A DNA stretch of 64,000 bases from Siphonodentalium dalli (taxonomy: Eukaryota > Mollusca > Scaphopoda > Gadilida > Siphonodentaliidae), in the NCBI GenBank assembly GCA_032622095.1, contig CP136067.1, positions 135,225,990 to 135,289,989 on the forward strand, in the 5' to 3' direction. Shown here piece by piece: positions 7,611 to 52,347 of this stretch (within the stretch, counting starts at the first letter, position 1; every line of letters starts with the position of its first letter). The notes under the pieces are model-generated. The model searched no databases. It was not told where the DNA came from and saw only the letters and a program-made list of their open reading frames with translations. The position numbers and the translations under genes are program-made.

Positions 7611-8110
7611 CCCTCAATAACACACACACCCACTACATTCATTTAACCCTTTACCCAACAGAAGGGCCCTGCGCCAATGCATTCTCTTATATATGCGAGT
7701 CGACCATAGGTCGCCTCGCATATATAAGAGAATGCATTGGCTTAACACATTAAAAATTATAAAATTGTTAAAGAATGTAAGAAAAAATGGTAAAAAGTGT
7801 TAAAAAAAGATTTTTTTTTAGGCCAATGCATTCTCTTATATATGCGAGGCGACCTATGGTCGACTCGCATATATAAGAGAATGCATTGGAACAGGGCATA
7901 ACTGTAACTATCACAATGTGGTCAAGGAGCCGGTTCCAATGATATCCATATTTGTATGGTTCTATTGAGACAGACCGAAGATATTTTAGGCTGTTGAAAC
8001 TTTATTTGGCCGGTTATGGCCGGTTTGTTGGGTAAAGGGTTAAAAACAAAATGTATATAGCCTTTTGATGATTTATTCCCATAAACAAGCTGAAAGTATT
8101 CTTATTTATT
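7610..8110. repeat. Dispersed repeat split by a T2 insertion
   Basis: The flanks ('AACACACACACCCACTACATT' shape on the left, 'ATTTATTCCCATAAACAAG' on the right) match 47815-47890, where they are contiguous apart from ~30 bp. The later copy therefore shows the site before the T2 element entered. Confidence 0.72.
7647..8039 (-). mobile_element. TTAA-flanked double-hairpin MITE, family T2 copy 1
   Basis: 393 bp between TTAA (7643-7646) and TTAA (8040-8043), with terminal inverted repeats CCCTTTACCCAACA. The CCCT start plus TTAA target is the classic piggyBac-type end. It contains two 67-bp palindromes at 7674-7740 and 7823-7889. It is in the opposite orientation to copies 2-4. No open frame for a transposase. 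Confidence 0.88.
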
Positions 8111-9424: not shown

Positions 9425-11960
9425 AAAATCAATAACATAACATAACATTTTTATTGACATAATACACCCACGCGGGGCAGTTGTCATAATACAGATAATT
9501 TAAACACAAGTCAAGACAATTTCATATAAAATATATATATAACATGTATTTGTAACTCAACACTATATTCTCATTTATTTGCGGAAAACTGCCGAACCAT
9601 GTTACAGATCAGATTGCATATACTCGGGTGTTCAGCCTTCATGAGGAATATGAACTTTTCTATTTCATCAAAGTTTACGAAAATTGGTTGGTGAACTCCT
9701 ATTTCAGTGAAAAATCTCTTCCGCAAATGGTTATGTTTTTCACATCTCATTATAAAGTGTTCTTCCGTTTCAATTTCATTTGCTTCACATTTTTTACATA
9801 TGCGTTTCTCGTAAGGTATTTTTGGCTGAGCGTGTCGCCCAACCTCTACCTGCAACTTATGATTGCTTACTCTAAGCTTACTGAAACACGATCTCGTATA
9901 AAAATTAGTAATTTGGAGTAAGTATGGTTCAATTTCATCGAATATTTCGTTTTTGAACGTTAGAATATGAACGCATTTTAATTCTTCCCGGACTTTATTG
10001 AGATATTCCAGCGATAGGTTATTCTCTAAATCGCTTATTTTTGGCATGTGAAGTGCTTCTGCCAAAAACGGTGGAATTATATATTCCTCGCATATTTGGG
10101 CAGAATTCTGAAGTAACATATTCGGTTTTCTTTCAGACAGTTTAAGCATATATCTTACAGCATTCATTATCGCATCATGTGCTATCGGAAATCTGCCCAA
10201 TTCTGCTCTTGTCGCGTGATTAGACGCCATTCTATTTAAACCCAACACTGATTTACAAAATTTAACATGTGTAATTTCACATGGAATAGATTCGAGCTTG
10301 TTAATATTAATATGCGATGCCCATATTTCGCAACCATGTAAAACGATAGGTTTTATCAGCTTGTCAAATAGTTTACACCAAATGCTTACTGAGAAAATTT
10401 CATGTTTGCGCAAGGATGACATTAAACTATGCATTGTTTTTAACCCTTTGTTGTTAACATCTATCTGGGCTTTGCAAAATTTTCCATTCGCACAAAATTT
10501 AATACCAAGATAGGTATATTCCTTAACTGTTTCCAACGGAGTGTTGCTTAATTTAAAGGCAGTTAGTTTTTGTGTTGCTCGTTTCCTGAATATCAGGCAT
10601 TTAGTTTTCTGAAGATTCACTTCTACTTTGTTCCTTATGCTGTAATTCTCCAATTTATTCAAACATCTTTGCATACCTTCAGCAGTTTCAGATAGCATAA
10701 CCAGATCATCTGCAAATAGCATATGACTTAGAGATTTTTCGCCAACTTTAACCGGTTTGCACGAATCATCAAATTCGGCGCTAATGTCATCAATAAATAT
10801 TTTTAAAATTGTGGGAGAAATAATACATCCTTGTCTAACGCCAATATTTGAAATCATATGAGGCCCATAACCTTGGCTAGTTCGTACCGAATAAGCACTT
10901 GACGCATACATAGATTCAATAGTTTTCATAATATTGCCATTGATACCAACATGTTTCAATTTAGTAAACATTGTCTCTCGGTGGACAGTATCAAATGCCT
11001 TACGGAAGTCTACAAATACTGCATATAGAGGTTTTGCCTCTTTCAGGTACTTAGTAGTTAGCGATTTTAAAATGAACGCACTATCAATCGTGCTTCTATT
11101 TTTTCTAAATCCATATTGATTATCACTTATAATATCATTATCATCCAAAAATTTGGAAATTCGTGTATTGATTATTTTGTTAAATATTTTACTTATAGAA
11201 CTGCTCAAAGCTATAGCTCTATAATTGTTTGGATCGTGACGATCACCTTTTTTATAGATAGGTGTCAGTGTGGACTCGCTCCAACATGTATGATAATATG
11301 AAGAGTTCAGAACCAAATTAAATAACTTTGTTAAATCTTGTGCCATAATCGGTCCGACGGCTTTCAATAGTTCATTCCGCAGCCCGTCACTGCCTGGAGA
11401 TTTATTATTTTTCAAACTCTTCAGAACGCCTATTACTTCCAGGGTCGAAATTTCATCATTATTGAGATCGCAAATGATCTTAGGTTTGTCTGTTTTACAT
11501 ATAAAAGTATCTTTATCCCGATTAGCGCTATTGCAATATAAATCATTAAAGAATTTAACACTAATGTCTGGATCAAGATCGTCGTTATCTTTCCTACTAT
11601 CATCTCTCATTTTTTTTAATAAACTTCCTGTATTCACTCGGATCTGACGTTTCCATGTTTTCAAGTTCTATTGCAAATTTGTGTCGGAATAATTTAGCTC
11701 TATATTTAGTTTCCCTTTTATATGCTTTTTTGGCTGCGCAAAATTTTTCAATTAAACTTTTGTTCAGCGGCTGCTCTCTCATTTCGCGCACAGCTTTTTG
11801 CATTATGCATTTTAGTGTTTTACACTTATCATTAAACCACCTACGTTTTTTATATTGCTTAATTTTACCATTCTTTACAGTTTTGGATGCCGACTTATTC
11901 AATCTTTTAAGAAGTTCCGTAAAGTCAGGCCCTCCGTCGGGGCCGTTGCTGAATAAAGGC
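9425..11960 (-). mobile_element. LINE (non-LTR retrotransposon), 5'-truncated, frameshifted
   Basis: A minus-strand element carrying most of a reverse-transcriptase ORF, a short 3' UTR and a 3' tail of ~3 TGTTA-type units (AACATAACATAACAT on the + strand near 9436-9451). The endonuclease domain upstream of RT is absent. The 5' end abuts a copy of the 'GTAGGAT' repeat at ~11990, and another copy lies beyond the 3' end at 8935, so the LINE may have inserted into or next to that repeat. It sits inside intron A of the receptor, in antisense orientation. Confidence 0.9.
9571..11960 (-). pseudogene. LINE ORF2-like reverse transcriptase with C-terminal CCHC motif, one frameshift
   Basis: The long open frame (stop at 9571) holds RT motifs in order: S-P-G-S-D-G, Y-G-F-R-K, the D-F-R-K-A-F-D aspartate, G-V-R-Q-G-C, the catalytic F-A-D-D (about residue 317-320 of the frame), then the thumb motif Y-T-Y-L-G-I-K-F. 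A C-x2-C-x10-H-x3-C motif near residues 623-641 is typical of several LINE clades. The upstream part (to ~11960) is a linker rich in Lys and Arg in another frame. The frames meet in a run of eight A at 11610-11617, where one base gained or lost breaks the ORF. The frame's first codon is not an ATG. Without endonuclease and with this break it is unlikely to be active. The clade (Jockey/CR1/RTE-like) is not resolved. Confidence 0.9.
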
Positions 11961-11994
11961 TTCCAAAGCGAGCCTGTTTCAGCTCCTCTATATA

Positions 11995-12165
11995 TAGGAG
12001 TAGGATCAGTCTGTCTCCAAGATCCTTGGACCGATTTCAACCAAATTTGGTGTGTTGACTCGAGGTACCCTGGCGGGTGTTATAACGGCACTAGATTTGT
12101 TTTGTTTTTTATCATTTTGATTTAAAAAAAATTAAATTGTTTAGAGAGCCCAATCTCGAAAAAAA
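11995..12165 (+). repeat. 'GTAGGAT..GTCTGTC' dispersed repeat copy 2
   Basis: Shares its order of blocks with 8935-9085 and carries an extra segment ('GACCGATTTCAACCAAATTT') that also occurs in the reverse copy near 39120-39145. It ends in a run of A. Confidence 0.7.
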
Positions 12166-12169
12166 AATG

Positions 12170-12895
12170 AGGGCGCCGCTGACTATATAGACTCTGTCTA
12201 AGATCAAAATGTGCGTGAAGCGTACGCAGGGCGGCATGCCTCTAACGCACAAAGGGGCCGGCGCATGCCCCATTTGTGTAGGGGGCCGCAAATCCCTCCG
12301 ACGCCGAATAAAAGCTCCGGTCGTCGACCGAAATGAGTCTGTTTCAGCTAATGTAGTACTCTAATTAACAATAAATATTCAAGATATCATTATAATGAAC
12401 GTTCTCCTTTCCTTGGTATGATTATATCTTCTAAGCACACTGGAGTCGAAGTTACAAACATAATCGCGAAGCGAAGTTTTTACCACCATTTCGCACTGAT
12501 CATTGGCGTGCATGCATGCAAGCAATGATGAAAATCTCTCTGTGTCTGTTAGATTCACGAAATCCAATCAAGTTCACGAACACCGCTAGGTATCACCCTG
12601 TCCTACTTCTGAGACTTTTTATTTGATTTATTGGGAAAATACACGATAATTTGGCTTTGATTTGGAAATGTTCCAAGGACTTATGTCGTTGTACGTTGTG
12701 ATGCGTTCGTCTCTGGCAAACATTACGGAGTTCTGGCATCATTCTCTCCATTGTTGTCGAAATAATGAAAGATTTTGTCACTTTGCTTCATGTACGCGCA
12801 TCATTATTATCACTCATGCACAACTCATATAACATCTATATCCAATCTACTATACGGCATGTCGTAATAATCTCCTCGATCAGAGCCGTTAAATT
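12170..12895. other. Intron A, no gene recognised
   Basis: A locally GC-rich stretch (12215-12330) resembles the sequence beyond the LINE 3' end ('GATCAAAATGTGC-GAAGCG' at both 9386 and 12203). The rest is unremarkable. Confidence 0.4.
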
Positions 12896-15590
12896 AACTC
12901 TTTGATTGCAGCCAATCCCGTTCTGAAAGCATACATTGTTTTGCTTCATTATCGTGAGGAATTTTTACATGTATGCATGAGCAGAAAATATTGCAAAGAA
13001 AATCCCCATGGATTCTAAGGTTGCTTGTTGAACTTATTATCTGTGCACGTCTAGAAATTGATGACTGCATGGGGATCTTGTAAATACCCACCCCGCGCGA
13101 CTATCCAATTATCATGGTTTAATACTCTAATGCCTGGCATGACGCTTATAAGAACGCTTATCCATGCATATTTCCGCGGTGTTTTGTGTACGTTAAGACG
13201 AATGGCGTGCGTGATCCGTATATATGTTATGGTACGTGTGTATCATTCTTTTTTGAACGATTTCTCGTGCGTCCGGTCCATTTCCAAGTTCTGACATCGT
13301 CCATTTAGCTATGTAGACATGCACGCTTACGATTGGTGCAAGATGTTTGGATTCATACGGGCATTCTGCAAGTAACTTGTTCTGCGAATGCAGCCGATAA
13401 ATCATCTCTTTGATTCGTGCCAATCCCATTCTAAAAGCATACATTGTATTGCTTCATTATCACGAGGGATGTTATAATATATGCGGGAAAATGTGCAAAG
13501 AAAATCCCCATGGATTTCCAAGGTTGTCTGTTGAACTTATTATCTGTGCACCTCTAAACAAATGGATGACTTGGGGATCTTGTAACTACCCACCCCGCGA
13601 CTATCCAATTATCATGGTTCAATACTCTAGGCATGACGATTAAGAACGCTTACCGATACATATTTCCGCGGTGTTTTGTGTATGTTAAGACGAATGGCGC
13701 ACGTGATCCGTATATATGTTATGGTACGTCTGTATCATCCTTTTTTGATCGATTTCTCGTGCGTCCGGTCCATTTCCAAGTTCTGATATCGTCCATTTAG
13801 CTATATATAGACATGCACGCTTACGATTGGTGCAAGAGGTTTGGATTCATACGGGCATTCTGCAAGTAACTTGTTCTGCGAATGCAGCCGATAAATCATC
13901 TCTTTGATTCGTGCCAATCCCGTTCTAAAAGCAAACATTGTATTGCTTCATTATCGCGAGGGATGTTATAATATATGCGGAAAATGTGCAAAGAAAATCC
14001 CCATGGATTTCCAAGGTTGTCTGTTGAACTTATTATCTGTGCACCCCTAAACAAATTGATGACTTGGGGATCTTGTAACTACCCACCCCGCGAGTATCCA
14101 TTTATCATGGTTCAATACTCTAGGCATGACAATTAAGAACGCTTACCCATGCATATTTCCGCGGTGTTTTGTGTATGTTAAGACGAATGGCGCGCGTGAT
14201 CCGTATATATGTTATGGTACGTGTGTGTATCATTCTTTTTTGAACGATTTCTCGTGCGTCCGGTCCATTTCCAAGTTCTGACATCGTCCATTTAGCTATA
14301 GACATGCACACTGACGATTGGTGCAAGAAGTTTGGATTCATATACGGCATTCTGCAAGTAACTTGTTCTGCGAATGCAGCCGATAAATTATCTTTGATTC
14401 CTGCCAATCCCGTTCTAAAAGAATACATTGTATTGCTTCATCATCGCGAGGGATGTTATAATATAAGCAGAACAAAATATGCAAAGAAAACCCAATGGAT
14501 TTCCAAGGTTGTCTGTGAACTTATTATCTGTGCACCCCTAAACAAATGGATGACTGAGGATTTTGTAACAGCCCGGTATACCCACCCGCGACTATCCAAT
14601 TATCGTGGTTTTATGTGTTCTATAGTGCCGGGTTTGACGCTTGAGATCACATACCCATGCATATTTCCGCGGTGTTTTGTGTATATGTTCAAACGAATGG
14701 CGTACGCGATACGTAAATATATATGTTATGGTAAACATCTATTCTTTTTGGATTTCTCGTGCGTCCGGTCCATTTCCAAGCTCTACCAGCGTCCTGCTGA
14801 TGACGGATGGAAGAGATTTATATTCACAGGGCATTCTGCATGTATAGCTTGTACTGCGAATGCACAGAAGACACTCTGTAGTCAGTGTAGTGACAATACT
14901 AATCTAATATATATGGTACATCTATTCTTTGTTTTATCTCATGCGTCCGGTCCATTTCCAAGCTACACCAGCGTCAATTAGCTATATATCCTTCTGATGG
15001 TGGATGCAAGATATTTGGATTCGTACGGGCATTCTAGCTTGTACTGCGTTTAATACTCTAATGCCGGGCATGACGCTTGCAAACGCTTAAAGTGCCGTGA
15101 AACACTCCGGTAGGGTGATACAATAGAAATGGAGAATAATCTTGCTCAAAGTCGTTATCATTATGAATGTTAATACAAATTTACAACACACACTGTCAGT
15201 CTTATATATTCTTAAATGCAATGAGTAGCGATGGCGAAATCGTTTGCGATAGTTTATCGGCCATTGTTGCGTCCCGAATCGAGATGTAAATATTTACAAT
15301 TGAGCGTTGTTCAGACGGTGTTTTCTATGGAGTTGTATGGTCGATTTCTTTGAGATTGTGGACGATGTTAGTACAATGCAACATTCCGGCAGTTGGCATA
15401 GCGCCTGACTACAAATTTATCAGTTTCGCGCACCCGAACAAGTCCATAATATGTCTTTAACATGCGTATTTCCGCGGTGTTGATGTGTGTATCCGTGATC
15501 CGTGTATATGTTACGGCACGTCTATTCTTTTTTGGATGATTTTTCGTGCGTCCGGTCCATTCGCCAGCTCTCCCAGCTAGAGCTATAGGT
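12896..15590 (+). repeat. Satellite-like tandem array, ~490-508-bp units, interrupted
   Basis: The anchor 'CCAATCCC' recurs at 12912, 13420, 13914 and 14404, giving periods of 508, 494 and 490 bp. Units share 'CCGCGGTGTTTTGTGTA', 'CGTGCGTCCGGTCCATTTCC', 'CATACGGGCATTCTGCA' and 'GGTTGTCTGTTGAAC'. The array decays after 14800 and resumes as a partial unit at 15457-15590 after the T3 element. Open frames through it (for example 14304-14981) are repeat read-through. Confidence 0.93.
15091..15456 (+). mobile_element. TTAA-flanked element, family T3 copy 2, inside the satellite array
   Basis: Lies between TTAA (15087-15090) and TTAA (15457-15460). The left flank ends '...CAAACGCTTAA' and the right flank starts 'TTAACATGCGTATTTCCGCG'. 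Uninterrupted units read 'AACGCTTATCCATGCATATT', so one unit was split by the insertion and the boundaries are exact. Confidence 0.85.
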
Positions 15591-16959: not shown

Positions 16960-19900
16960 AAGTTCCATTATTGGTCGACCTCTGCACCCCCACGCCAGGA
17001 CTCAACTTCACCACACTAATTTTCTTTCTTAATGTCTCCTCTAATTTTTTTCGTTTGTTAACAAGAAAAAAAAGTGGCCGCAGAGTCTCCAGACAAGATG
17101 GTGTCCATCATGGCGGCCATTTTTTAAATATGCACAAGGTCTCTTTCATCGCCGTTATAGCAAAGATGATATCACATACGGTCTCGGTTTCCGTTCGATT
17201 CGTTATGCTAATATAAAACCCTTACGAATTAGCCAAAAATCCGACACCAAACTCCAATATGGCGGCCAAGATGGCCGCCGAAATTTGAAAAATAGCTTTT
17301 CTGACATTTCACCACCTTTCGTTTGTCTCTGTGGGAAATTATAGGCATCTTGGCGTGATTTTATACATTCATCGTATAGCAGACATAATGGGACCATAAT
17401 ATACATTCCTTGCTGGATACGTTTGTCCGATATCACGTTTTCCCAAATGCCGGTATAATCCGGTCATAGCCGAATCGACGCTAATAACGCGATGTCTGTT
17501 TCGAATCAATGAATGTTGTTGCTATCATAACAACCCCCATGCATATATATGTGCAGGAGATACTCGAGCTAGGATTCCTCTTATACCTGAGTTTAGGAAT
17601 ATTTACCCAAATCCAAGATGGCGGCCAAAATGGCCACCAGAAATAGAAAAATCTCCGAAAATCGCTGATTTTAATACCAGTGAGCGTTATTGCCACGACA
17701 ACTCCACACATGCTTACTATTGCGAGTGGGGAACACTGAGGCGAAGAACTGTCCTTATATCACATCCAAATAAAAGTCACCCAAATCCAAAATGGCGCCC
17801 ACAATGGCAGACAAATTTTGAAAACTCACCGAAATTTCCCCATGTTCACATCATTGGCATTATTGTCGAGACAATTCCACAAATGCTGACAATTGAGTTG
17901 GAAATACTGAGGTGAAGTAATTACCTTGCATCTCATGTAAGAAATTGTTTTCCAAATCGAAGATGGCGGCCAAAATGGCGACCGAAATTTGAAAACAAGC
18001 TTACATTCATTACTTTCTTACGATGGGCGTTATTGTTACGCGAATTCTACCTACAATTACATGTTTATATGGAATATTTATATGAAGTATTCATTTGAGT
18101 TTGGCAATTGATGCTCACAGTCAAGCTGGCGGCTAAACTGGCGGGCAGAAATTTAAAAGAATTCGATATTTTGACATACTGATTTCAACTTTTTGTCATA
18201 ATATCGATATGTATCGTCGAAACCATACACAAACCATCTATTTGTTCAACTTAAAACGTCTCAAAACGCATAACATAGCTCATATCCTTCTCGAAGGACA
18301 AAAGCCCACACTTAATAATCGCGATGTGGCATTTCGAAATCCATTCTCTACTTAGCGCCGATAATGGCGTAACCGTAGGTGCGTCGATTAGTCATATCAG
18401 AACAATTACCTGATAATAGATTCTGATTTACCACGTGCATACTTATCTGGACCAGCTTCCACTTCTTTGTCTGATAAATATAGGTCGCTCACACCGACAA
18501 AGTATTGAACACTTCCTGTGAGAAGGGTATCTCTCATCGTATTGTTTCAAACAATTCATTTTCCAGTGTCTAGCTTACGATTTTAAATATTTGCAAAATA
18601 TGGGATTTGTGCGTCATCTTGAACTAGAAAGTCATATGGTCGATGAGTATACAAGCTTACAGAATTCCATCCCTATGTATGTCTGTCTCATACCCCATGG
18701 GGCTAACCGCATGTACACCTGGTGAACTTCACAGTTAGCTAGTCACTTTTCAATATATGGTTCGCCAACTCACAAACTTAGCGAACGCAATAGCATACGT
18801 GGACAACTTCAGCAGTGTTTCGAAGGTTGCAAGCTATCTCATTGGACATTGGACAGATGCCTATCTGCTAAGGAGAAGACCATAATGTACGGACACGTCT
18901 TGACTTCTTCGCGGTGCTAGTCTGTGGACATGCGCCATGATAGTGGGAATGAAATGGGCCAAGTTATACACCACCCCTACACTAGGTGCATATTTCAGAT
19001 ATAGAGTGTCAAGCGTGTCGGTGTTTTTGGTGTGGTAAGATTTTATTCCTCATCCGTTTCGAAGCCGGTTTGAATCAACTTGACCGGACGTATAATGAAG
19101 GTATGCGTTGTTCTTATCCTCTCTCAGGGTTAGTGTCAGTAAGTGGGCGTATTATTAAAGAAAATGTCAGGAACTGTGGTGCATATTTGCTAAGGCGCAG
19201 AAGACCATAATGCATAATATACCCACACTATGATATGTCATACTCGCGCTGGGTGGTGGTTGGTATGGTTCAAGAAAAAAATGCCACCACAAGGGTGAAA
19301 TGTTCAACGCGAAGAACATCCAGAGGAATGGGTACACCAAGTGATTTCTTGGTAACATCACCATTCCGACCATTTCCCTCATGAGACATTAACAACTATA
19401 TTCTAAAGTTATATATATAAAGCTCTATGATCATAAAGGGCACGTTCGACCTTTGAAGGATTTCCCCATCGTTCACAACCAATGCCGTCGAGACTGTAAA
19501 TTGTTCTTTAAATGCAAAACAAATGTGAAATAAATGCAAAACAGTTCCTGACATTTTCTTGAATACTACCGCCCACACTCTGACACTAACCCTGACAGAG
19601 GATAAGAACAACGAATACCTTCATTCTATCAAGACATTATCCTTTAGCTCATCCGACTGTTCTGTGGGTGGCTAGCATAGTATTATCCAGACAAAATTAT
19701 ACGTCTGGTCAAGTTGATTCAGAACGGCTTCGAAACTGATGGAAGGTAATTACTTCACCTCAGTATTTCCAAAAGGGAATTTCAGTGATTTTTCAAAATC
19801 TGTGGGCGCAATTTTGGATTTGGGGGACTTTTATTTGGATATGTTATAGAGACAGTTCCTCGCCTCAGTGTTCCCGACTCACAATAGTAAGCATGTGTGG

Positions 19901-20716: not shown

Positions 20717-21135
20717 GTATGATGGTAACATGGAGATAGTTCTGCACCGAGAGAAACCCATACGCACGGATGTTGGAGAAATCACCACACAGAAAAGAAT
20801 ACGCCTGAGATCACTCTGCCTGTGTCAGCTCCAGGATTTCCCGTTTGACAGCCACAACTGTGCCCTTAACTTTAGCGTGTCAGAAACTTTTGGTGCCGAA
20901 TGGAATTTTACAGCACAGAAGCCTTCGTCAAGCGGGGTATCAGATCTGAGTCCATGGGCGCTTCATAACTTTTACATTTCCACGGTAACAAACGAAACGT
21001 TCTCTTATAACGTATCGGTGTCGAGGAAGCCAGGAATGCTGCATCAAACCATGGTTCTTCCCGCCGTATTATTAGCGTTTTCCATTCCATTCCTATTTCT
21101 TCTGCATCCAGAAAATAGGGACAGAATTGTGATAT
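20717..21135 (+). CDS. Cys-loop receptor, exon C (Cys loop to TM1)
   Basis: Acceptor 'TGGTCTTCGCAG' (AG 20715-20716), donor 'GATAT|GTAAGT'. The 419 bp start with the last base of a split Gly codon and end in phase 1. The signature Cys loop is at 20817-20861: Cys, 13 residues, Cys, with the hallmark F-P-F-D. TM1 follows near 21043-21105, with the conserved proline in V-L-P-A-V-L-L. Four N-glycosylation sequons (N-F-S, N-F-T, N-E-T, N-V-S) lie outside the membrane. The loop B tryptophan motif and a loop C vicinal Cys pair are absent. This is the strongest exon. Confidence 0.95.
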
Positions 21136-21590
21136 GTAAGTACACAGTTATGTTCTTAAGATGAGACCTTAAATTGGAATTAAGATTTCTTCTTTTGTGT
21201 TAGTATACCCAACGCTCTGTTTGGCAGTATAGGATTCTGTCAGAAATATTATAATATTTCGCAGTCAACCACAACCCGAGAAAGTCTTATCAGAAATGAT
21301 GTAATTAAGTAAAACATTGGTTCAATGAAAGGATATCAAACGTACTCATATTTTCTGACCATGCGCTTATATACATGAAAATACATGTACATGAACTTTT
21401 ATGCCAATATTCGACAATGGACCAATGACAAGATCAATCGAGCGATGTTTATAAATTATGGATATTTCGAATTCTCAAACCTCAATATTTGAGAAACAGC
21501 TCTCATCAGAAATTGAATGTCCGTTATCCACGAATTAGTTGTGTTACTATACTAACTGACTGAGACAACCATGTGTGACTAAATGGGAAT

Positions 21591-21908
21591 TGTACACTAA
21601 ATCCGGCCATTTATAGGACCATCTCCTATTATACTCGACAGAATATATGCAATAAATGATTAGAGTTGAGCCAAGGATGAGTGCAAAATAGAAATGATGT
21701 AAACAACGTGTTAATTATAATGTAAATGAGTTATGGCTTCGAGCCATAACATAATTTTCATATTATAATTACGATGTTGTTTTACATCGTTCATGAATTA
21801 AATGACTGAATTTTGCACTCATCCATGGCTTAAATTCATTCATTTGTTGCATATAGTATGTTGAGTATAATAGGAGGTGGTCCAATAATTGGCACTATTT
21901 AGTGTACA
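21591..21908. repeat. 318-bp foldback element in intron C
   Basis: The outer ends TGTACACTAA and TTAGTGTACA pair, as do the arms all the way to the central 'GTTATGGCTTCGAGCCATAAC' turn. Arms are ~150 bp with a three-base loop and some mismatches. Further pairing ('ATGTCCGTTA'/'TAACGGACAT') extends outside to about 21519-21928. Confidence 0.88.
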
Positions 21909-22386
21909 GCCCCCCTTTAACGGACATAGCTCATTCGAGCTTCCAAATTTTGTCTACGTACTTTGGAAGCCGGTATAAAATAGGTTGACATATGCACGAA
22001 ACATTGATATACCGGCTTCACATGCTCTGAAAAATACTTCCGTGGTCACAGCCGTTTTCCAGCTGTTTTTCAATTTTTTCGCACAGAAGTGAAACAAACG
22101 ATCTTTATTTCTACCATATCGAACGCGCTTTTCTGTTCAATGTCATGCACATACCTGTTGTTTGTTTGCATGAGACCCAAAAACCGTGTTCAAATTTGCA
22201 TTTTTTTTTATGTTTTTGTAACTTCAATGCGTATTTCTGGGGCATATATTGCCCGTAGAAATTTAGGTTTCAAATTCAAGTTCAAGTATTTATCGACCTA
22301 TTTCGATACCGGGAAAATTCAAACACAAATATTATTTGGTGTAGTTTGGAGCGCAAACTGCCATGTGGCTTTAAAACTGAATTTAA

Positions 22387-22778
22387 CCCTTTACCCAACA
22401 AACCGGCCAAAACCGGCCAAATAAAGCTTCAACAGCCTAAAATATATTCGGTCTGTCTCAATAGAACCATACAAATATGGATATCATTGGAACCGGCTCA
22501 TTGACCACATTGTGATAGTTACAGTTATGCCCTGTGCCAATGCATTCTCTTATATATGCGAGTCGACCATAGGTCGCCTCGCATATATAAGAGAATGCAT
22601 TGGCCTAAAAACAATCTTTTTTTAACACTTTTTACCATTTTTTCTTACATTCTTTAACAATTTTATAATTTTTAATGTTTTAAGCCAATGCATTCTCTTA
22701 TATATGCGAGGCGACCTATGGTCGACTCGCATATATAAGAGAATGCATTGGCACAGGGCCCTTCTGTTGGGTAAAGGG
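22387..22778 (+). mobile_element. TTAA-flanked double-hairpin MITE, family T2 copy 2
   Basis: 392 bp between TTAA (22383-22386) and TTAA (22779-22782), with CCCTTTACCCAACA ends. Hairpins lie at 22537-22603 and 22685-22751. Intronic. Confidence 0.9.
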
Positions 22779-22929
22779 TTAATTGAGAAGGACTTTTGTT
22801 TTTAGATTAAAATTGTTACGTTGGTGCCGGTCCGTCAATGTAATCATGAACTGGTCAGGTTCTATACAATCTGCAACATAATTATGATAACGATGTTTGA
22901 TTGGTGGGAAGATTTTAGAAGTTAGAAAA

Positions 22930-25020
22930 TACTACAGAGTTGTTATTTCTTGGGAATCTGGATACAGAATCTGGATTCAGATTATGGATTAGTCCCCGTA
23001 CGACTTGGTTCGGTAAACGAACAGACCAGAATCAGTAAACGAACAGACCGTAATCGTATTCTCGTGGTATCCAGATTCGGATTCGGATTCCGATTACGGA
23101 CTCAAACGTTCATAATGTAAACAAACCGAGATTTCGCCACCTCGGAGTTTAAGAACACAATAAAACATAAGAACCCGTCCCTTGTGTACAAATTATTGCA
23201 TAATATAAACGATCTATATCAAAGAATTTTAAATGCGGAGACAAATTTGTTTTATTGAGTGTAAACTGGGAGAATATTACTGAAATTAGCCAAATAATAA
23301 CTCTATTGATAGTAACGCTGGGCGAGCACTTCGGTTGATGGCGAACTTGAAGCAAAGCATTGCCAATTTCATTGTCACTTTCATCATATCATGTTCATTT
23401 CATAATTCCATCCATAAAATACCGTCCGAACGCATGTCGATTTCAAATTCTGCAGATACGTCACCATTGACCGAATTAACGCGAACCTGCATGGATATGC
23501 CTTCTGCTTTGTTCGTTAGTATATGTTCCTTCTTATTCAAGAAATAGTAGGATTATATTATATCGATGGATTATCAGATATGCGTATGTACTATCTAGTC
23601 TTATAGCAATTTCATATTTAAAATGTGTTGTTTCGTTAAATGCAGTCGTTTTGCATAATAGTCTCTGTATAGTGCAGAAACACAGGCATTTTTGGCCAAC
23701 ATTAGTTGGAAAATAAAGCTTTGCCCATGAAGATAATGTTGTGGTCTTGTGATCGCACGTGAACTCATCTCCCAATCGCAAAAACACAAATGTAAAGCTT
23801 ATTCTAGGATCTCAGGACTATATAGTACATATGTCAGTCAATTTATTGATTAAGTACCCACACGTACAAGTTCTAGTGACGTTGCTAGAGGTTTCCTCAA
23901 ATTTCCGACCAACTGCACCCCCCTTGAACCAAACATCAATTCCATTTTCACCCCCTTGGAAATATCCAACTTGACACACCCTAAGATTGGAAAATAGCCA
24001 ACTTTTACTGGTTGAATAAAATCAAACAATGAGAACAATTCCGACCTATATATGGTGTCAAATTAATGTCCGACTAATGTTGTGTCATAACTGCTGGAAA
24101 TGTACCAAAGTTTAGTTTAGACACATTTATTTTAAAATATTTGTCAAATTTAGATAACACGTGAAATATAACACATACATCTGTTTATACAGACAATGGG
24201 ATTGGATGACAAGTGCTGACTCACTTTATGGTACCCCCTCTCCCATATGTTATTACACTGACAAACTAAATAATTAGTAATGGCAAAGCAACATGACTAC
24301 AAAAACAAGTTGAACATATATACAGATAACCTGTTACCCCCTCCCCCGAGTTAGTCATAATTTAAGTTTGTATATGTTTTTATCTAAAATCGGGTTTGTT
24401 TGTTGCGTTTGCTGGCTTGTACGTATCCTTATTTGGAACAGTTAGTCAAAAATAATCCCGATTTGCCTCACGTATGAATGACTGTACAGCTAAGAAAATT
24501 GTACCAAAGTTCGGGGGGGGGGTCGTGACACCCTAACCAACCCCTGTCGCCACGCCCATGTACAACTACCGAGTTTCATGGGTTCTCCACAACGTCTTCG
24601 GAATTTGATTCAGGATACCTAGAGCTGTTAGAAATTCTTGCCCTCAACAATAAACACACTTTAACTTGAAAAAAAAGAAGATGCGATTAAGTCGGATTGG
24701 CAGCTAATTATGTTCCATGTATATACACATAGAAGCAACGCATGACTTTCACAACAAACATGAACTTTATAAATATAAGATACAAATGATACGTGTGTCA
24801 AATAAACGAGTCATGTTTGACGCTGGGAGAACATTAAACCTAGTATCGGAGACAAAGTGGATTTCAAAATCTGACCTAGAATCGGGAATTAGCCACGCCC
24901 CCGTAATCGGATTCGGATTCTGAATCCGGATTCTCACGAAATAACGACTCAGGGAAAACATGCTCGTGACATCTTTTGTAGCTATTGTCAGCGGTGATAT
25001 TGTAATTTTTCTCGTTCCAG
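22930..25020. other. Intron C, distal part; fragments only
   Basis: Short motifs 'GTAAACGAACAGACC' (repeated at ~23012 and ~23035) and 'CGGATTCGGATTC' occur at 23080 and 24908. Sequence near 23990-24110 ('AATGAGAACAATTC-GACCTAT') resembles 48015-48090, a dispersed repeat. No further exon is required by the phases, and none was found. Confidence 0.4.
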
Positions 25021-25107
25021 ATGTCATCATCATGGCGATTCTGACGTATTTGCTGTGTTACGTCCGATCCATCGTTGGTGACAACACGCCGGTGACACCT
25101 AATCTAG
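25021..25107 (+). CDS. Cys-loop receptor, exon D (TM2 pore helix)
   Basis: Acceptor 'TTTTTCTCGTTCCAG' (AG 25019-25020), donor 'CTAG|GTGAAC'; phase 1 in and phase 1 out. Joined to exon C it reads R-D-R-I-V-I-Y-V-I-I-M-A-I-L-T-Y-L-L-C-Y-V-R-S, then G-D-N-T-P-V-T-P-N-L. A second possible donor at 25140 (ATG|GTGAGA) would add 32 bp and break phase with the next exon. With the 25107 end, the distance from the TM2-TM3 proline to the R-S after TM3 is exactly the family's 31 residues. Pore positions are unusual (see findings). Confidence 0.85.
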
Positions 25108-26083
25108 GTGAACATCTTACCTTACCGTACAGACAGATGGTGAGACATCAAGTATCGATCAATCGAATAAGGGTATAACAAAGAGGAATGTCGCATAAAG
25201 CTTACATGTATATATATATACATGTACAATGAAAATTTGGAGGCATGACACTCACTCAATATCGGTACCACAAATGTTCCACCATATTGACAACATTACT
25301 GGAAGATTAAGAGTTAGAACTTTTCAACTAGAAAATAGGTTGAGATGAATTAATTTCCCCACCAATAGTTAGTGATAGGTATGAGATTATAGACCGACCG
25401 AATATTGGATTTAGCATCCCAGTTTTCGGATGAAATTTTAAAATAAAAAAACTTGAGGTACAAGTCGAAACATTAAAACCTAGTGGTGCTTTTCCCGACA
25501 TTGGTCTTGTGCAAGGAGGTAGCAACTGACAAATCGGATCGAACCCCCATCGTGGAAACACAAGCCACGTCTTAAACGTCAAGACATAGTTCTGCCCATC
25601 GCTACACTAGGCAGGTCTGACTACTTCCATTGGTGACATCCACTTTTATGGATTTCCCGAACTTATCATATTAAAAAATTATACTCTATGACACGTGAAG
25701 ACTGTGTTGTATCCATCAAAGCCAAGGGACATTACTCTGCATTGCTGTTTGGCCACGTCCCTTCTTTGTTGTAAACTGGCTCCTGAGCTCCAAGTGAACT
25801 TTTGTCTGGCAACTGTACTGTTTATTATGACGATGTTTCTCAAATGTTATGTTATGGATGGTGTGTATCTCGGTAATGTGTCTATTATCTGATACCAAAT
25901 TGTACTTACACAATAACAACAAACACATTGCATAACTTTCAGTCTAAACAACGTATTGGGTTGTTCCCAAGGTATCTTTGAACAAGCCGCCAGGTTTGCA
26001 CAGGAAGTATTTCCGCTTTTCAGCCAGACTCAGTTACACGCACATGTACCATCTAGCTTTGACCTGGAGTTGGTTCGGATTAA

Positions 26084-26443
26084 AGACATATTATGGACTT
26101 GTTCGGGTTCGTGAAATTGATAAGTTAGTACTCAGGCGCATTGCCAACCTGTGAAATGTAGCATTCTACTAACATCGCCGAATATTTCTAAGAAATCAAC
26201 AATACCACTCTGTTGAACACATCGTCTGATGTACGCTCAATTGTAAATATTTACATGTAGAATCAACTATCGGCGATAATCTAACGCAAATTATTTCACC
26301 ATCGAGAGTCATTGCATTTAATTATTATATAAAAATGACGATACGTGTTGTCAATTTCTATTAATATTCGTACAAATAACTACCTTGAGCAAGAGTATTC
26401 TCCATTTCTATTTGATCACCCAACCGGAGTGTTTCACATCACT
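26084..26443 (-). mobile_element. TTAA-flanked element, family T3 copy 3
   Basis: Between TTAA (26080-26083) and TTAA (26444-26447), reverse complement of copies 1 and 2 ('TTATGGACTTGTTCGGGTTC' on the left, 'GGAGTGTTTCACATC' on the right). It lies in intron D. Confidence 0.8.
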
Positions 26444-27207
26444 TTAATGTGTCTATAGTGTAAGGGATAATTCGGCCCATTAGAGAAGTGTCACAGGTGT
26501 TGTGATGAAAAAGAATATTGAATATTTTGTGGAAACTATGCACTGGGCAGTCTCAGATTCAGAGCTGACAAACAGTTTTTGTTATATTTTAGCACCTACA
26601 AGGAATATAGACTATCGCATACATTCAGGCTAAAACATGGATATTTTGTAGATAAACAAGTTGTTTTTTGGAGTTCCTGATAGACTCCCGTTTCCTTGTT
26701 CTATTAACTAGTTTACGTGTGTTTCAACATCTAGCGACTCGAGGATAAAGTTCGTTTATGGTTTACTACGTCGATTTACGCCCACGTTCTCGGCAAATAA
26801 AAGTATGCACACATTCTATTTCTAGTTATGTTGTCATAAACATAATATATGTTATTAATTGGTTGTTTCCATATTGGCCGCGTTATGAGGCCGAGGTCTG
26901 TCGTATTGACTTCCCTTCGTTGATACTATCGAGTTATACATCAAAATAAAGGAAAATTCATGGCCAATAAGACACAATGAAATATATTGTGACTGAGAGG
27001 AACGATTTTGAGAATCTATGACGAATATGATAGATGGTGTATTATCGGACTTGTGAACCTTGTCACTGTTATAATATTGGTATATCTGGTATTTAACCAC
27101 AGGGGCATGTGTACAGTATCCTACAAGAAAACCATAGTCAGAAATGGTAACGCCACCAAAATCATATTATTAGCCATAAATATAAATTATAATATAATTA
27201 TAATATA

Positions 27208-27263
27208 AAAATATTATTCATTAGCTAGCGCTAATATAGGCGCTAACTAATGAATAATATTAT
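27208..27263. repeat. Short near-perfect palindrome in intron D
   Basis: AATATTATTCATTAG...GCGC pairs with GCGC..CTAATGAATAATATT around an 8-bp centre. Confidence 0.8.
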
Positions 27264-27851
27264 TTGATTGACTTGTTAAATAACATCTAATAAATATTCA
27301 TCTTATTCACAACTTTAAGGAGTCCTTCTGGCACACACGAGAATATTTATCGCCGTTTGATTTGCACCAAGTGAACTCGGCGCATATATAATTGATAGAA
27401 CAGACCTCTATTATGATGATCGTGTCGTTATTTGTTTAAGATGCGTATCAATTGACATATACGCACCGTTCCCTCATTAAAATCTACATATATCGCCCAT
27501 TTTAAGTGACCTCCGCGAATTCGGGGTCTTCCGCAAAGTGACCTCCACAAATCGGGATCTAATGCAAATCGTCGCACCCAATGCAATTTGTAAACAAATA
27601 CGATTGACATGCGTTTTAACGAGGTGAGCTTTAATTAAATGAAAGAAGCATTCTACATAAACTATTTGTCATGGACTCAGCCAGTGTGCCATATATATGT
27701 GTCAACTAAGGTCGCTTTGCGTGGTAAAAGTGAAAAGTGAAAGTGGAAAATCCTATTGAAAATGAAAGTAGCCTACAATATTGGGAATTTCGCGGCAGAT
27801 TGCAGTGAATCTATACTATTGGAAGTGAATGTACAATTCCTGGAATTCTAT

Positions 27852-27936
27852 CAGATATCGCGACTCTGCTCGTTTTCGTGATCATAGGTTATATAGGGCC
27901 TATATGACCACGAAAACGAGTCGAGTCGCGATACAT
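27852..27936. repeat. Palindrome in intron D
   Basis: 'ATCGCGACTC-GCTCGTTTTCGTG' pairs with 'CACGAAAACGAGTCGAGTCG', with arms of ~35 bp including 'ATATAGGGCCTATAT'. Confidence 0.85.
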
Positions 27937-28487
27937 CCATCGGTACAAACACATTGTGTATACGATACAATTTTGACTTGATGACCAGAAAATAAATATG
28001 GCGGTTACTCCAAGTCTCCAACAGAACAGACATGCGCGCTCCAATTAAAATTACCCATAATTCACTTCACTACACCAGGGGTTCCCAATGGGTTATACAT
28101 TATTTTCAGGCTATCAGATTATTTATATTTTCAAGAACATATTATTACACCGGTGACTTTAAGTTTACAATTTCAGCCTGTCCTGACTCTATCGGTATGT
28201 TTGAGTTATATTTTCAAGAACATATTATTTACGGTGGCGTTAACTTTACAATTTCAGCATTTACGTGATTCTATCGGTACGATTGAGCAAGGTACAAAAA
28301 ACCTATTCTCTCACAATGTATTCGCTCACTGCTCCACAGATTATCAAAAACTGAAAAACAGCTTACACCACCTTGTGGCGTAATAATCGTATTAGTAACT
28401 CTACTGCCTCTGATAGCCGTGTGCCCTGTGCACAGGCACAGTCTATATGTTTAGTTATAGACGTTGTCTTGCTCTTTTCACTTGCAG

Positions 28488-28606
28488 TATCTTATTATGC
28501 AACCACCATAGTCATCGACGTCATATGTATGCTGTTATCTATAATCGTCACACAGATGTATAGCAGGAGCGGGAAAAGGGGGCGTGTTCCATCAATGCTT
28601 AGACCG
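28488..28606 (+). CDS. Cys-loop receptor, exon E (TM3)
   Basis: Acceptor 'GCTCTTTTCACTTGCAG' (AG 28486-28487), donor 'AGACCG|GTAAGT'; phase 1 in, phase 0 out. It encodes S-Y-Y-A-T-T-I-V-I-D-V-I-C-M-L-L-S-I-I-V-T as TM3, followed by a basic stretch (R-S-G-K-R-G-R) at the start of the cytoplasmic loop. The R-S after TM3 aligns with the family's H-H-R-S. Confidence 0.88.
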
Positions 28607-34289: not shown

Positions 34290-34442
34290 GCTCTGAAGGA
34301 TCAGGACACTAAACACCAGGTGGCTGTCGCCGCAGATGACATGCGCGACGAATGGCGACAGTTCACTTTGCTCATCGATAGAATACTGTTTGTTGTATTC
34401 TTTTGCATCTTTGTTGTGTACACGTACTCTCTGCTTGGATGA
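34290..34442 (+). CDS. Cys-loop receptor, exon G (MA helix, TM4, stop)
   Basis: Acceptor 'AAATCTCATCCGCAG' (AG 34288-34289), phase 0, stop TGA at 34440-34442. The amphipathic segment A-D-D-M-R-D-E-W-R-Q-F leads into D-R-I-L-F-V-V-F-F-C-I-F-V-V-Y, the family's W-x-x-x-A-x-x-x-D-R-x-x-x-x-x-F motif and TM4. Only seven residues follow TM4. This is a typical C-terminal exon for a nicotinic-type subunit. Confidence 0.92.
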   Translation, partial: ALKDQDTKHQVAVAADDMRDEWRQFTLLIDRILFVVFFCIFVVYTYSLLG

Positions 34443-35704: not shown

Positions 35705-36096
35705 CCCTTTACCCAACAAACCGGCCAAAACCGGCCAAATAAAGCTTCAACAGCCTAAAATATCTTCGGTCTGTCTCAATAGAACCATACAAATATGGAT
35801 ATCATTGGAACCGGCTCCTTGACCACATTGTGATAGTTACAGTTATGCCCTGTGCCAATGCATTCTCTTATATATGCGAGTCGACCATAGGTCGCCTCGC
35901 ATATATAAGAGAATGCATTGGCCTAAAAAAAATCTTTTCTTAACACTTTTTACCATTTTTTCTTACATTCTTTAACAATTTTATAATTTTTAATGTCTTA
36001 AGCCAATGCATTCTCTTATATATGCGAGGCGACCTATGGTCGACTCGCATATATAAGAGAATGCATTGGCACAGGGCCCTTCTGTTGGGTAAAGGG
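35705..36096 (+). mobile_element. Double-hairpin MITE, family T2 copy 3
   Basis: Same body as the other T2 copies, with hairpins at 35855-35921 and 36003-36069. The flanks read AAAA and TTAT rather than TTAA, so the target site is degraded. It carries an AATAAA (35738-35743), the first I see by eye downstream of the receptor stop codon. Confidence 0.88.
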
Positions 36097-36837: not shown

Positions 36838-37230
36838 CCATTTACCCAACAAACCGGCCAAAAACGCGCAAATAAAGCTTCAACAGCCTAAAATATCTTC
36901 GGTCTGTCTCAATAGAACCATACAAATATGGATATCATTGGAACCGGCTCCTTGACCACATTGTGATAGTTACAGTTATGCCCTGTGCCAATGCATTCTC
37001 TTATATATGCGAGTCGACCATAGGTCGCCTCGCATATATAAGAGAATGCATTGGCCAAAAAAATATCCTTTTTTTAACACTTTTTACCATTTTTTCTTAC
37101 ATTCTTTAACAATATTATAATTTTTAATGTGTTAAACCAATGCATTCTCTTATATATGCGAGGCGACCTATGGTCGACTCGCATATATAAGAGAATGCAT
37201 TGGCACAGGGCCGTTCTGTTGGGTAAAGGG
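36838..37230 (+). mobile_element. Double-hairpin MITE, family T2 copy 4
   Basis: Between TTAA (36834-36837) and TTAA (37231-37234). The left end is CCATTTACCCAACA (one change). Hairpins at 36988-37054 and 37137-37203. Confidence 0.9.
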
Positions 37231-51814: not shown

Positions 51815-52347
51815 AATAAAATAATCAAAGGGTCATAACGCCCGCCATTAAATAATATCGGATCAAACCCATATTCGAACTCGATCTGTATTTTGAGTTG
51901 AGAAACTCACATACAAAATTTGGTTTCTATCAGTTGGAATATGGTTGATTTATCGAAGCATGCATGAATTCTATGTCAAAGGGCCATAACTCCATTAAAA
52001 AATATCGGATCAAACCCATATTCGAACTAGATATGTATTTTGGGCTAAGAAACTCGCATACCAGATTTGGTGACGGTCAGATAAATTTTTTTGAGTTATG
52101 GCAGCATGCATGAATTCTAAGTCGAAAAAGGGCCATAACTCCATAAAAAAAAATCTGATCAAACCCATATTCGAACTTGATCTGTATTTGGTGCTGAGAA
52201 ATTCATATACAAAATTTGGTTCTGATCAGATAGAATATATTTCAGTTATCGCACCATGCGTAAAGTGTCTACAGACAGACGGACTAACGACGAGTGGTCA
52301 ATCCGGACAACGACACTATGTTTACCATACTATGGTATGGTTAAACA
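51815..52347 (+). repeat. 'GGGTCATAACTCC' dispersed repeat copy 2
   Basis: Three to four ~120-bp internal units ('GGGCCATAACTCC', 'ATCGGATCAAACCCATATTC') and the same tail as copy 1 ('GTGGTCAATCCGGACAA', 'TACCATACTATGGTA'). Confidence 0.85.

What the first reader, a model, noticed from the sequence alone, without database searches (positions are those of the whole stretch)
20717..28606. Cys-loop receptor with a rebuilt pore: 9' Leu replaced by Ala
Joining exons C, D and E in phase puts the TM2 helix in register by the D-R at -1'/0' and by the exact 31-residue TM2-TM3 spacing. In that register 2' is Val (usually Thr/Ser), 6' Ile (Ser/Thr), 9' Ala (the gate Leu), 13' Tyr (Val), 17' Tyr (Leu), 19' Arg and 20' Ser (Glu). 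The polar rings of a conducting nicotinic pore are nearly all lost. It may be a modulatory subunit, a channel with unusual selectivity, or a non-conducting receptor.
Basis: partly seen in the sequence, partly recalled or inferred. Interest (0 to 1): 0.75.

Follow-up and report, generated by a model that had tools for sequence, protein, structure and literature searches.

The report
Receptor gene lacking the usual gate
A divergent animal gene for a neurotransmitter-receptor-like ion channel carries alanine where nearly all relatives examined carry the leucine that forms the channel gate, and a few related genes in the same genome share the change, so it looks like an evolved variant and not a reading error.

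Summary
Confirmed: exons C, D and E encode TM1-TM3 of a Cys-loop receptor, and the register is right (D-1' R0' I1' V2' ... I6' ... A9' ... Y13' ... Y17' V18' R19' S20'). TM1-TM3 aligns without gaps to nicotinic subunits. The codon-4' intron, the 87-nt TM2 exon and the 119-nt TM3 exon recur in two distant paralogues. I add a TM4 exon, 34290-34442. A9' is exceptional: 66 of 67 loci read with an uninterrupted TM2 have L9'. It is not unique: of 14 genes with the codon-4' intron, TM2 was recovered in 10; 9' is Ala in 5 (window and four loci at C7:204-205 Mb, with two distinct TM2 sequences, both R19' S20'), Leu in 4, Val in 1. Between the two A9' types dN/dS is 0.44-0.48 (no significance test). The window gene has also lost the loop-C Cys pair and loop-B Trp. 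Best reading: an intact, fast-evolved accessory subunit with a weakened 9' gate. N-terminal exons were not found; no transcript or orthologue was available, so recent decay is not excluded.

The parts
20717..21135 (+). exon C: end of ligand-binding domain (Cys-loop C-x13-C with FPFD, degenerate loops B and C), TM1, TM2 positions -1' to 3' and first base of codon 4'
   Evidence: Pfam PF02931 E 4.1e-9; phase-2 acceptor as in L015; phase-1 donor in codon 4' as in L015, L016 and L018
25021..25107 (+). exon D: TM2 from codon 4' (A9', Y13', Y17', R19', S20'), 87 nt, phase 1/1
   Evidence: an 87-nt exon at this place in nine other genes
28488..28606 (+). exon E: TM3 and start of the cytoplasmic loop, 119 nt, phase 1 to 0
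   Evidence: matches the TM3 exons of L016 (score 76) and L015 (score 56)
34290..34442 (+). last exon: MA helix, TM4 and TGA stop; joins exon E in phase 0. A further cytoplasmic exon between 28607 and 34289 is not excluded
   Evidence: family HMM E 2.8e-4; match to 8bx5 goes from E 8.3e-10 to 5e-13 with it, though the TM4 stretch alone has E 0.91
18739..18882 (+). tentative only: open stretch resembling the beta2 / loop D segment (ASYLIGHWTDAYLL); no GT donor before its stop
   Evidence: E 0.61 and 0.14, not significant

Best explanation
The feature is the 3' part (end of the ligand-binding domain to the stop codon) of a real, fast-evolved Cys-loop receptor subunit gene, in an animal genome with a very large nicotinic-like expansion. 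In trees it groups with other multi-exon genes that have a phase-1 intron in codon 4' of TM2, among which 9' is either Ala or Leu. The subunit most likely does not make a receptor alone. It has lost the principal-face ligand residues and is proposed to join a mixed pentamer with a family member that keeps the ligand site. There its A9' loosens the hydrophobic gate, so the mixed channel opens more easily, while bulky Y13' and Y17' and R19' alter conductance and outer charge; D-1' keeps the inner ring cation-type. Shown here: gene structure, register, A9', A9' in four other loci, loss of loop B and C residues. Inferred: expression, assembly, gating.
For: Gap-free TM1-TM3 match; TM4 exon; intron position, phase and exon lengths shared; 258 codons open, while simulated neutral substitution keeps them open in 6% of runs at 0.1 per site (stops only, no indels); A9' with R19' S20' in four other loci, dN/dS 0.44-0.48 between their two types; window in a group with L015, L016, L018, L095 and two of the four A9' loci at 96/93 and with all four at 93/89; loop C shortened and without Cys, loop-B Trp aligned to Ser. 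L9'A raises unliganded gating and agonist sensitivity (PMC11601209 and PMC3639424, passages).
Against: No transcript, orthologue or selection test for the window gene itself; it has the longest branch in both trees (3.8 and 3.0). Loop A and beta1-beta2 exons were not found within 50 kb upstream. A clade of window plus A9' loci is neither shown nor rejected (p-AU 0.233), so A9' may have arisen twice. The codon-4' intron is not private to the group: three C5 genes have it and fall outside. Nothing here tests assembly or current.
Confidence: 0.45

Rival explanations
1. A gene in recent decay: an old receptor whose constraint has relaxed, so that pore and ligand residues drift.
For: Longest branch in both trees; best-scoring match elsewhere in the genome only 31% identical; 5' exons not found; both ligand site and pore eroded; Pfam membrane domain far below its cut-off.
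Against: Four exons fully open, splice sites intact, exon lengths and phases shared, Cys-loop FPFD, TM1, TM3 and TM4 kept; neutral drift of 0.1 substitutions per site would have given a stop in about 94% of simulated copies.
Confidence: 0.25
2. A homomeric or self-sufficient channel whose gate has moved outward from 9' to the Tyr rings at 13' and 17' (or Cys 16').
For: The closest solved structure by sequence, Alpo4 (8bx5), is narrowest at Met 16' and not at 9' (PMC10338036, passages); the window has bulky Y13' and Y17'.
Against: Alpo4 keeps L9' and gave no agonist response in the passages I saw; the window subunit lacks the principal ligand residues; the four A9' loci have Val at 13'.
Confidence: 0.15
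3. A non-conducting receptor or dominant-negative / chaperone subunit.
For: Polar 2' and 6' rings replaced by Val and Ile; Arg at 19'; ligand residues lost.
Against: Acid retained at -1'; the A9' loci keep T2', the loop-B Trp and one or two loop-C Cys, so A9' itself does not go with loss of those features there.
Confidence: 0.15

Closest known systems
Alpo4 of Alvinella pompejana (PDB 8bx5; PMC10338036, PMC4801368, passages)
   Same: Best sequence match in the PDB over TM1-TM3 and TM4; orphan nicotinic-like lophotrochozoan receptor with an unusual pore
   Different: Alpo4 has E-1', T2', G6', L9', L13', M16', D20' and a loop-B Trp; the window has D-1', V2', I6', A9', Y13', C16', S20' and Ser for that Trp. 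Grouping unstable: with the window's group 93/89, outside it
Lophotrochozoan expanded nicotinic receptors (PMC6896357, passages)
   Same: Same superfamily; this genome shows the same kind of massive expansion
   Different: The window gene keeps introns, including one inside TM2, and lacks L9'
A9' loci of this genome (L091-L094, C7:204.4-205.0 Mb)
   Same: A9', R19', S20', codon-4' intron, 87-nt TM2 exon
   Different: They keep T2', loop-B Trp and one or two loop-C Cys but have lost FPFD in the Cys-loop; the window is the reverse
Laboratory L9'A nicotinic mutants
   Same: Same residue at the same place; passages in PMC11601209 and PMC3639424
   Different: Engineered single changes in otherwise normal pores, not natural sequence with many other changes

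Membership tests
Cys-loop receptor superfamily | Cys-x13-Cys loop with FPFD in the ligand-binding domain | tested here: met
   CLCQLQDFPFDSHNC; PF02931 36.6 bits against a cut-off of 26
Cys-loop receptor superfamily | TM1-TM3 block and TM4 with MA helix | tested here: met
   Gap-free alignment and TM4 match; but Pfam PF02932 is absent and stays below its cut-off (12.4 of 28.1 bits)
Cys-loop receptor superfamily | Pentamer with a gated pore | not testable with these tools
   needs expression or structure
Nicotinic alpha subunit | Vicinal Cys pair in loop C | tested here: not met
   loop C shortened, no Cys
Nicotinic receptor | Loop-B Trp | tested here: not met
   aligned residue is Ser; the motif's role is recalled knowledge
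Nicotinic receptor | Leu at 9' of TM2 | tested here: not met
   Ala; 66 of 67 loci with uninterrupted TM2 have Leu
Cation-type pore | Acid at -1', no Pro-Ala motif | tested here: met
   D-1' (Asp, not the usual Glu), no insertion; criterion from passages of PMC4055736
Genes of this genome with a codon-4' intron | Phase-1 intron in codon 4', 87-nt TM2 exon | tested here: met
   these genes are not one clade
Alpo4-like clade | Groups with Alpo4 in a tree | tested here: inconclusive
   with it (93/89), not

The most novel reading that the evidence does not exclude
A lineage of natural Cys-loop receptor subunits has abandoned the 9' Leu gate and fixed A9' R19' S20', giving channels that rest close to opening or gate further out, at 13'-17'; the window gene is its most extreme member and works only in mixed pentamers.
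Probability: 0.25. Interest if true: 0.75.

Novelty: new variant of a known kind. Interest (0 to 1): 0.5.

Why it matters
Leu 9' is described as highly conserved in these channels, and its mutation as raising unliganded gating (PMC11601209, passage). Natural genes that lack it, with dN/dS below 1 between paralogues, would allow a direct test of whether a pentameric channel can close without that ring, and where its gate then lies.

Tried and rejected
Other splice sites for TM2: rejected, because the same intron place and an 87-nt exon recur in nine other genes. Length was free (L015, L016, L037), five lengths from 81 to 93 were allowed, and L018 was found with the length held at 87 (score 30, next site 19). 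A unique pore: rejected, because four other loci have A9'. An anion channel of the Lymnaea / schistosome type: no Pro-Ala motif in the window gene. N-terminal exons: patterns, local alignment, a loop-A profile with phase-2 donors, and an HMM gave nothing clearly above background; two upstream pieces scored 48 against 42 for the best piece of the minus strand and 46 downstream. One of the two, at 12006, lies antisense to an ORF (11603-12079, minus; no Pfam match) that overlaps a reverse-transcriptase ORF, and I treat it as chance. The best HMM candidate, 18739-18882, had E 0.14 (best minus-strand hit 0.99). In one search the pattern misread TM2 in L005, L049 and L079; one search replaces it. 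The choice rule gave credit for small residues at 2' and Ser/Thr at 6', so those counts lean that way; it gave none for 9'. In one search I placed the TM4 exon one base off; one search repeats it correctly. Papers PMC10338036, PMC4801368, PMC6896357, PMC3639424, PMC4055736, PMC12005716 and PMC11601209 were seen as passages; the others only in listings; no paper was read whole. My searches nearest to natural changes at this leucine were made, and I saw none in those listings; that does not show that none is in print. The species was not identified.

Full report
What was checked. The window lies at C7:135.2 Mb of an unnamed 2.2-Gb animal genome in nine contigs. Exons C (20717-21135), D (25021-25107) and E (28488-28606) have canonical splice sites and join to 208 open codons. 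Pfam finds the ligand-binding domain (36.6 bits). The PDB comparison finds nicotinic receptors, best Alpo4 8bx5 (E 8.3e-10), and aligns 112 columns over TM1-TM3 without a gap to a muscle beta subunit, which puts Ala at 9'.

Independent support for the splice sites. In L015 and L016 the intron also falls after the first base of codon 4', and in L018. The TM2 exon is 87 nt, phase 1/1, in the window and in the genes of L015, L016, L018, L037, L081, L084, L086, L087 and L088. The TM3 exon is 119 nt, phase 1 to 0, in the window, L015 and L016 (lengths in the two loci counted from the printed exons). In one search the TM3 of L016 scores 76 against that of the window, that of L015 56.

A fourth exon. 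34290-34442 encodes the MA helix, TM4 and a stop, in phase 0 with exon E. Adding it takes the E-value against 8bx5 to 5e-13; the TM4 stretch alone has E 0.91 and E 2.8e-4 against an HMM of 14 proteins of this genome. Exons upstream of C were sought in 20.7 kb of window and, in 30 kb of flank, without convincing result.

How unusual is A9'? I read TM2 in 67 loci of this genome with an uninterrupted TM2: 66 have Leu at 9' and one (L019) has Phe; counting distinct TM2 sequences, 54 of 55. At 6', 66 of 67 have Ser or Thr; at 13', 60 of 67 have Val (one locus, L051, leaves the family pattern after 9'). These 67 are 17 loci chosen from the lists, plus 50 of the 60 loci fetched so as to hold the best 67 rows, which counts 151 matches; they are not a random sample. 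The window differs at all three positions.

It is not alone. Thirteen of those best 67 rows have an exon that ends in a phase-1 donor in codon 4', and with the window that makes 14 genes. TM2 was recovered in 10 of 14. For the genes of L022, L030, L032 and L035 it was not found in the 6-7 kb fetched downstream. The 9' residue is Ala in five (window and the loci L091, L092, L093 and L094 at C7:204.4-205.0 Mb), Leu in four (L015, L016, L018, L095) and Val in one (L098). The four A9' loci are two pairs with identical TM2 proteins, so they give two distinct TM2 sequences; both share R19' S20' with the window. Between the two types dN/dS is 0.44 (L091-L093) and 0.48 (L092-L094) over exon C plus TM2, 185 codons each; within the pairs it is 0.27 and 0.29, from 10 and 6 changes; for L016-L095 it is 0.67 (no significance test). 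I read this as purifying selection on A9' receptors.

Place of the window gene. A tree of 15 proteins with TM3 where known puts it with L015, L016, L018, L095 and the two A9' loci included, L092 and L093 (96/93). A subgroup of window, L016, L095, L092 and L093 is weak (61/90). Window plus L092 and L093 alone is not rejected (p-AU 0.233) and not shown. A tree of 21 without TM3, with all four A9' loci, gives the same group (93/89) and adds Alpo4 to it (93/89), which one search does not. In both trees the three C5 genes with the codon-4' intron (L098, L099, L100) fall on the other side, so that intron is older than the group or arose more than once. The window branch is the longest in both. Its best-scoring match elsewhere in the genome by exon C is 31% identical.

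What it has lost and kept. Kept: the Cys-loop with FPFD, an acid at -1', R0', TM1, TM3, TM4. Lost: the Trp of loop B (Ser), the vicinal Cys and several residues of loop C, S/T at 2' and 6', L9', V13' and the acid at 20'. It is therefore not a nicotinic alpha subunit by defining features.

Is it alive? All 258 codons of four exons are open. In simulated neutral substitution 54% of copies stay open at 0.02 per site, 22% at 0.05, 6% at 0.1 and 1% at 0.2 (stops only). Long-standing decay is unlikely; recent decay is not excluded. No selection test on the gene itself was possible, since no close relative was found.

How it may work. L9'A in known receptors raises unliganded gating and agonist sensitivity (PMC11601209; PMC3639424; passages). 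A subunit that lacks the principal ligand residues but keeps the Cys-loop and an acid at -1' is best read as an accessory member of a mixed pentamer, whose A9' weakens the gate; Tyr at 13' and 17' may narrow the outer pore. The outward gate of Alpo4 at 16' (PMC10338036) is a precedent for a gate elsewhere, but Alpo4 has shown no agonist response in the passages I saw. All of this step is inference.

Verdict. Observation confirmed; interpretation partly supported; new variant of a known kind. What makes it of interest is the set of A9' genes, more than the window gene alone.

Noticed in passing
whole genome G000: Very large nicotinic-like expansion: 150 of 822 (PF02931) and 150 of 1304 (PF02932) first-look candidates were scored and all listed rows pass the cut-off. 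Most of the 150 rows lie in open frames of about 340-500 aa, so look single-exon, often in clusters (for example C4:40.0 Mb, C7:187-188 Mb).
   Followed up: partly
C7:204.4358-204.4361 and 204.9589-204.9594 Mb (L036, L032): Partial extra copies of the loop C-TM1 exon just downstream of the full exon in one A9' gene (L036/L092) and in a sister gene whose TM2 was not found (L032/L096); possible alternative exons.
   Followed up: no
7674-7889, 22537-22751, 35855-36069, 36988-37203: Four copies of a double-palindrome element: 16 exact matches to a 26-base arm, none in 100 shuffles; one copy lies in the intron between exons C and D.
   Followed up: partly
9574-11667, minus strand: 698-aa open frame with a reverse-transcriptase domain (PF00078, E 4.9e-38), probably a retroelement.
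   Followed up: partly
12884-14569 and 51845-52259: Tandem arrays with periods of 493 and 149 bases.
   Followed up: no
L098, L099, L100 (C5:117.59, 124.42 and 145.83 Mb): Three codon-4' intron genes read P-A-K at -2' to 0', i.e. the Pro-Ala motif tied to anion selectivity in PMC4055736 (passages): candidate acetylcholine-gated chloride channels. L098 also has Val at 9'.
   Followed up: no
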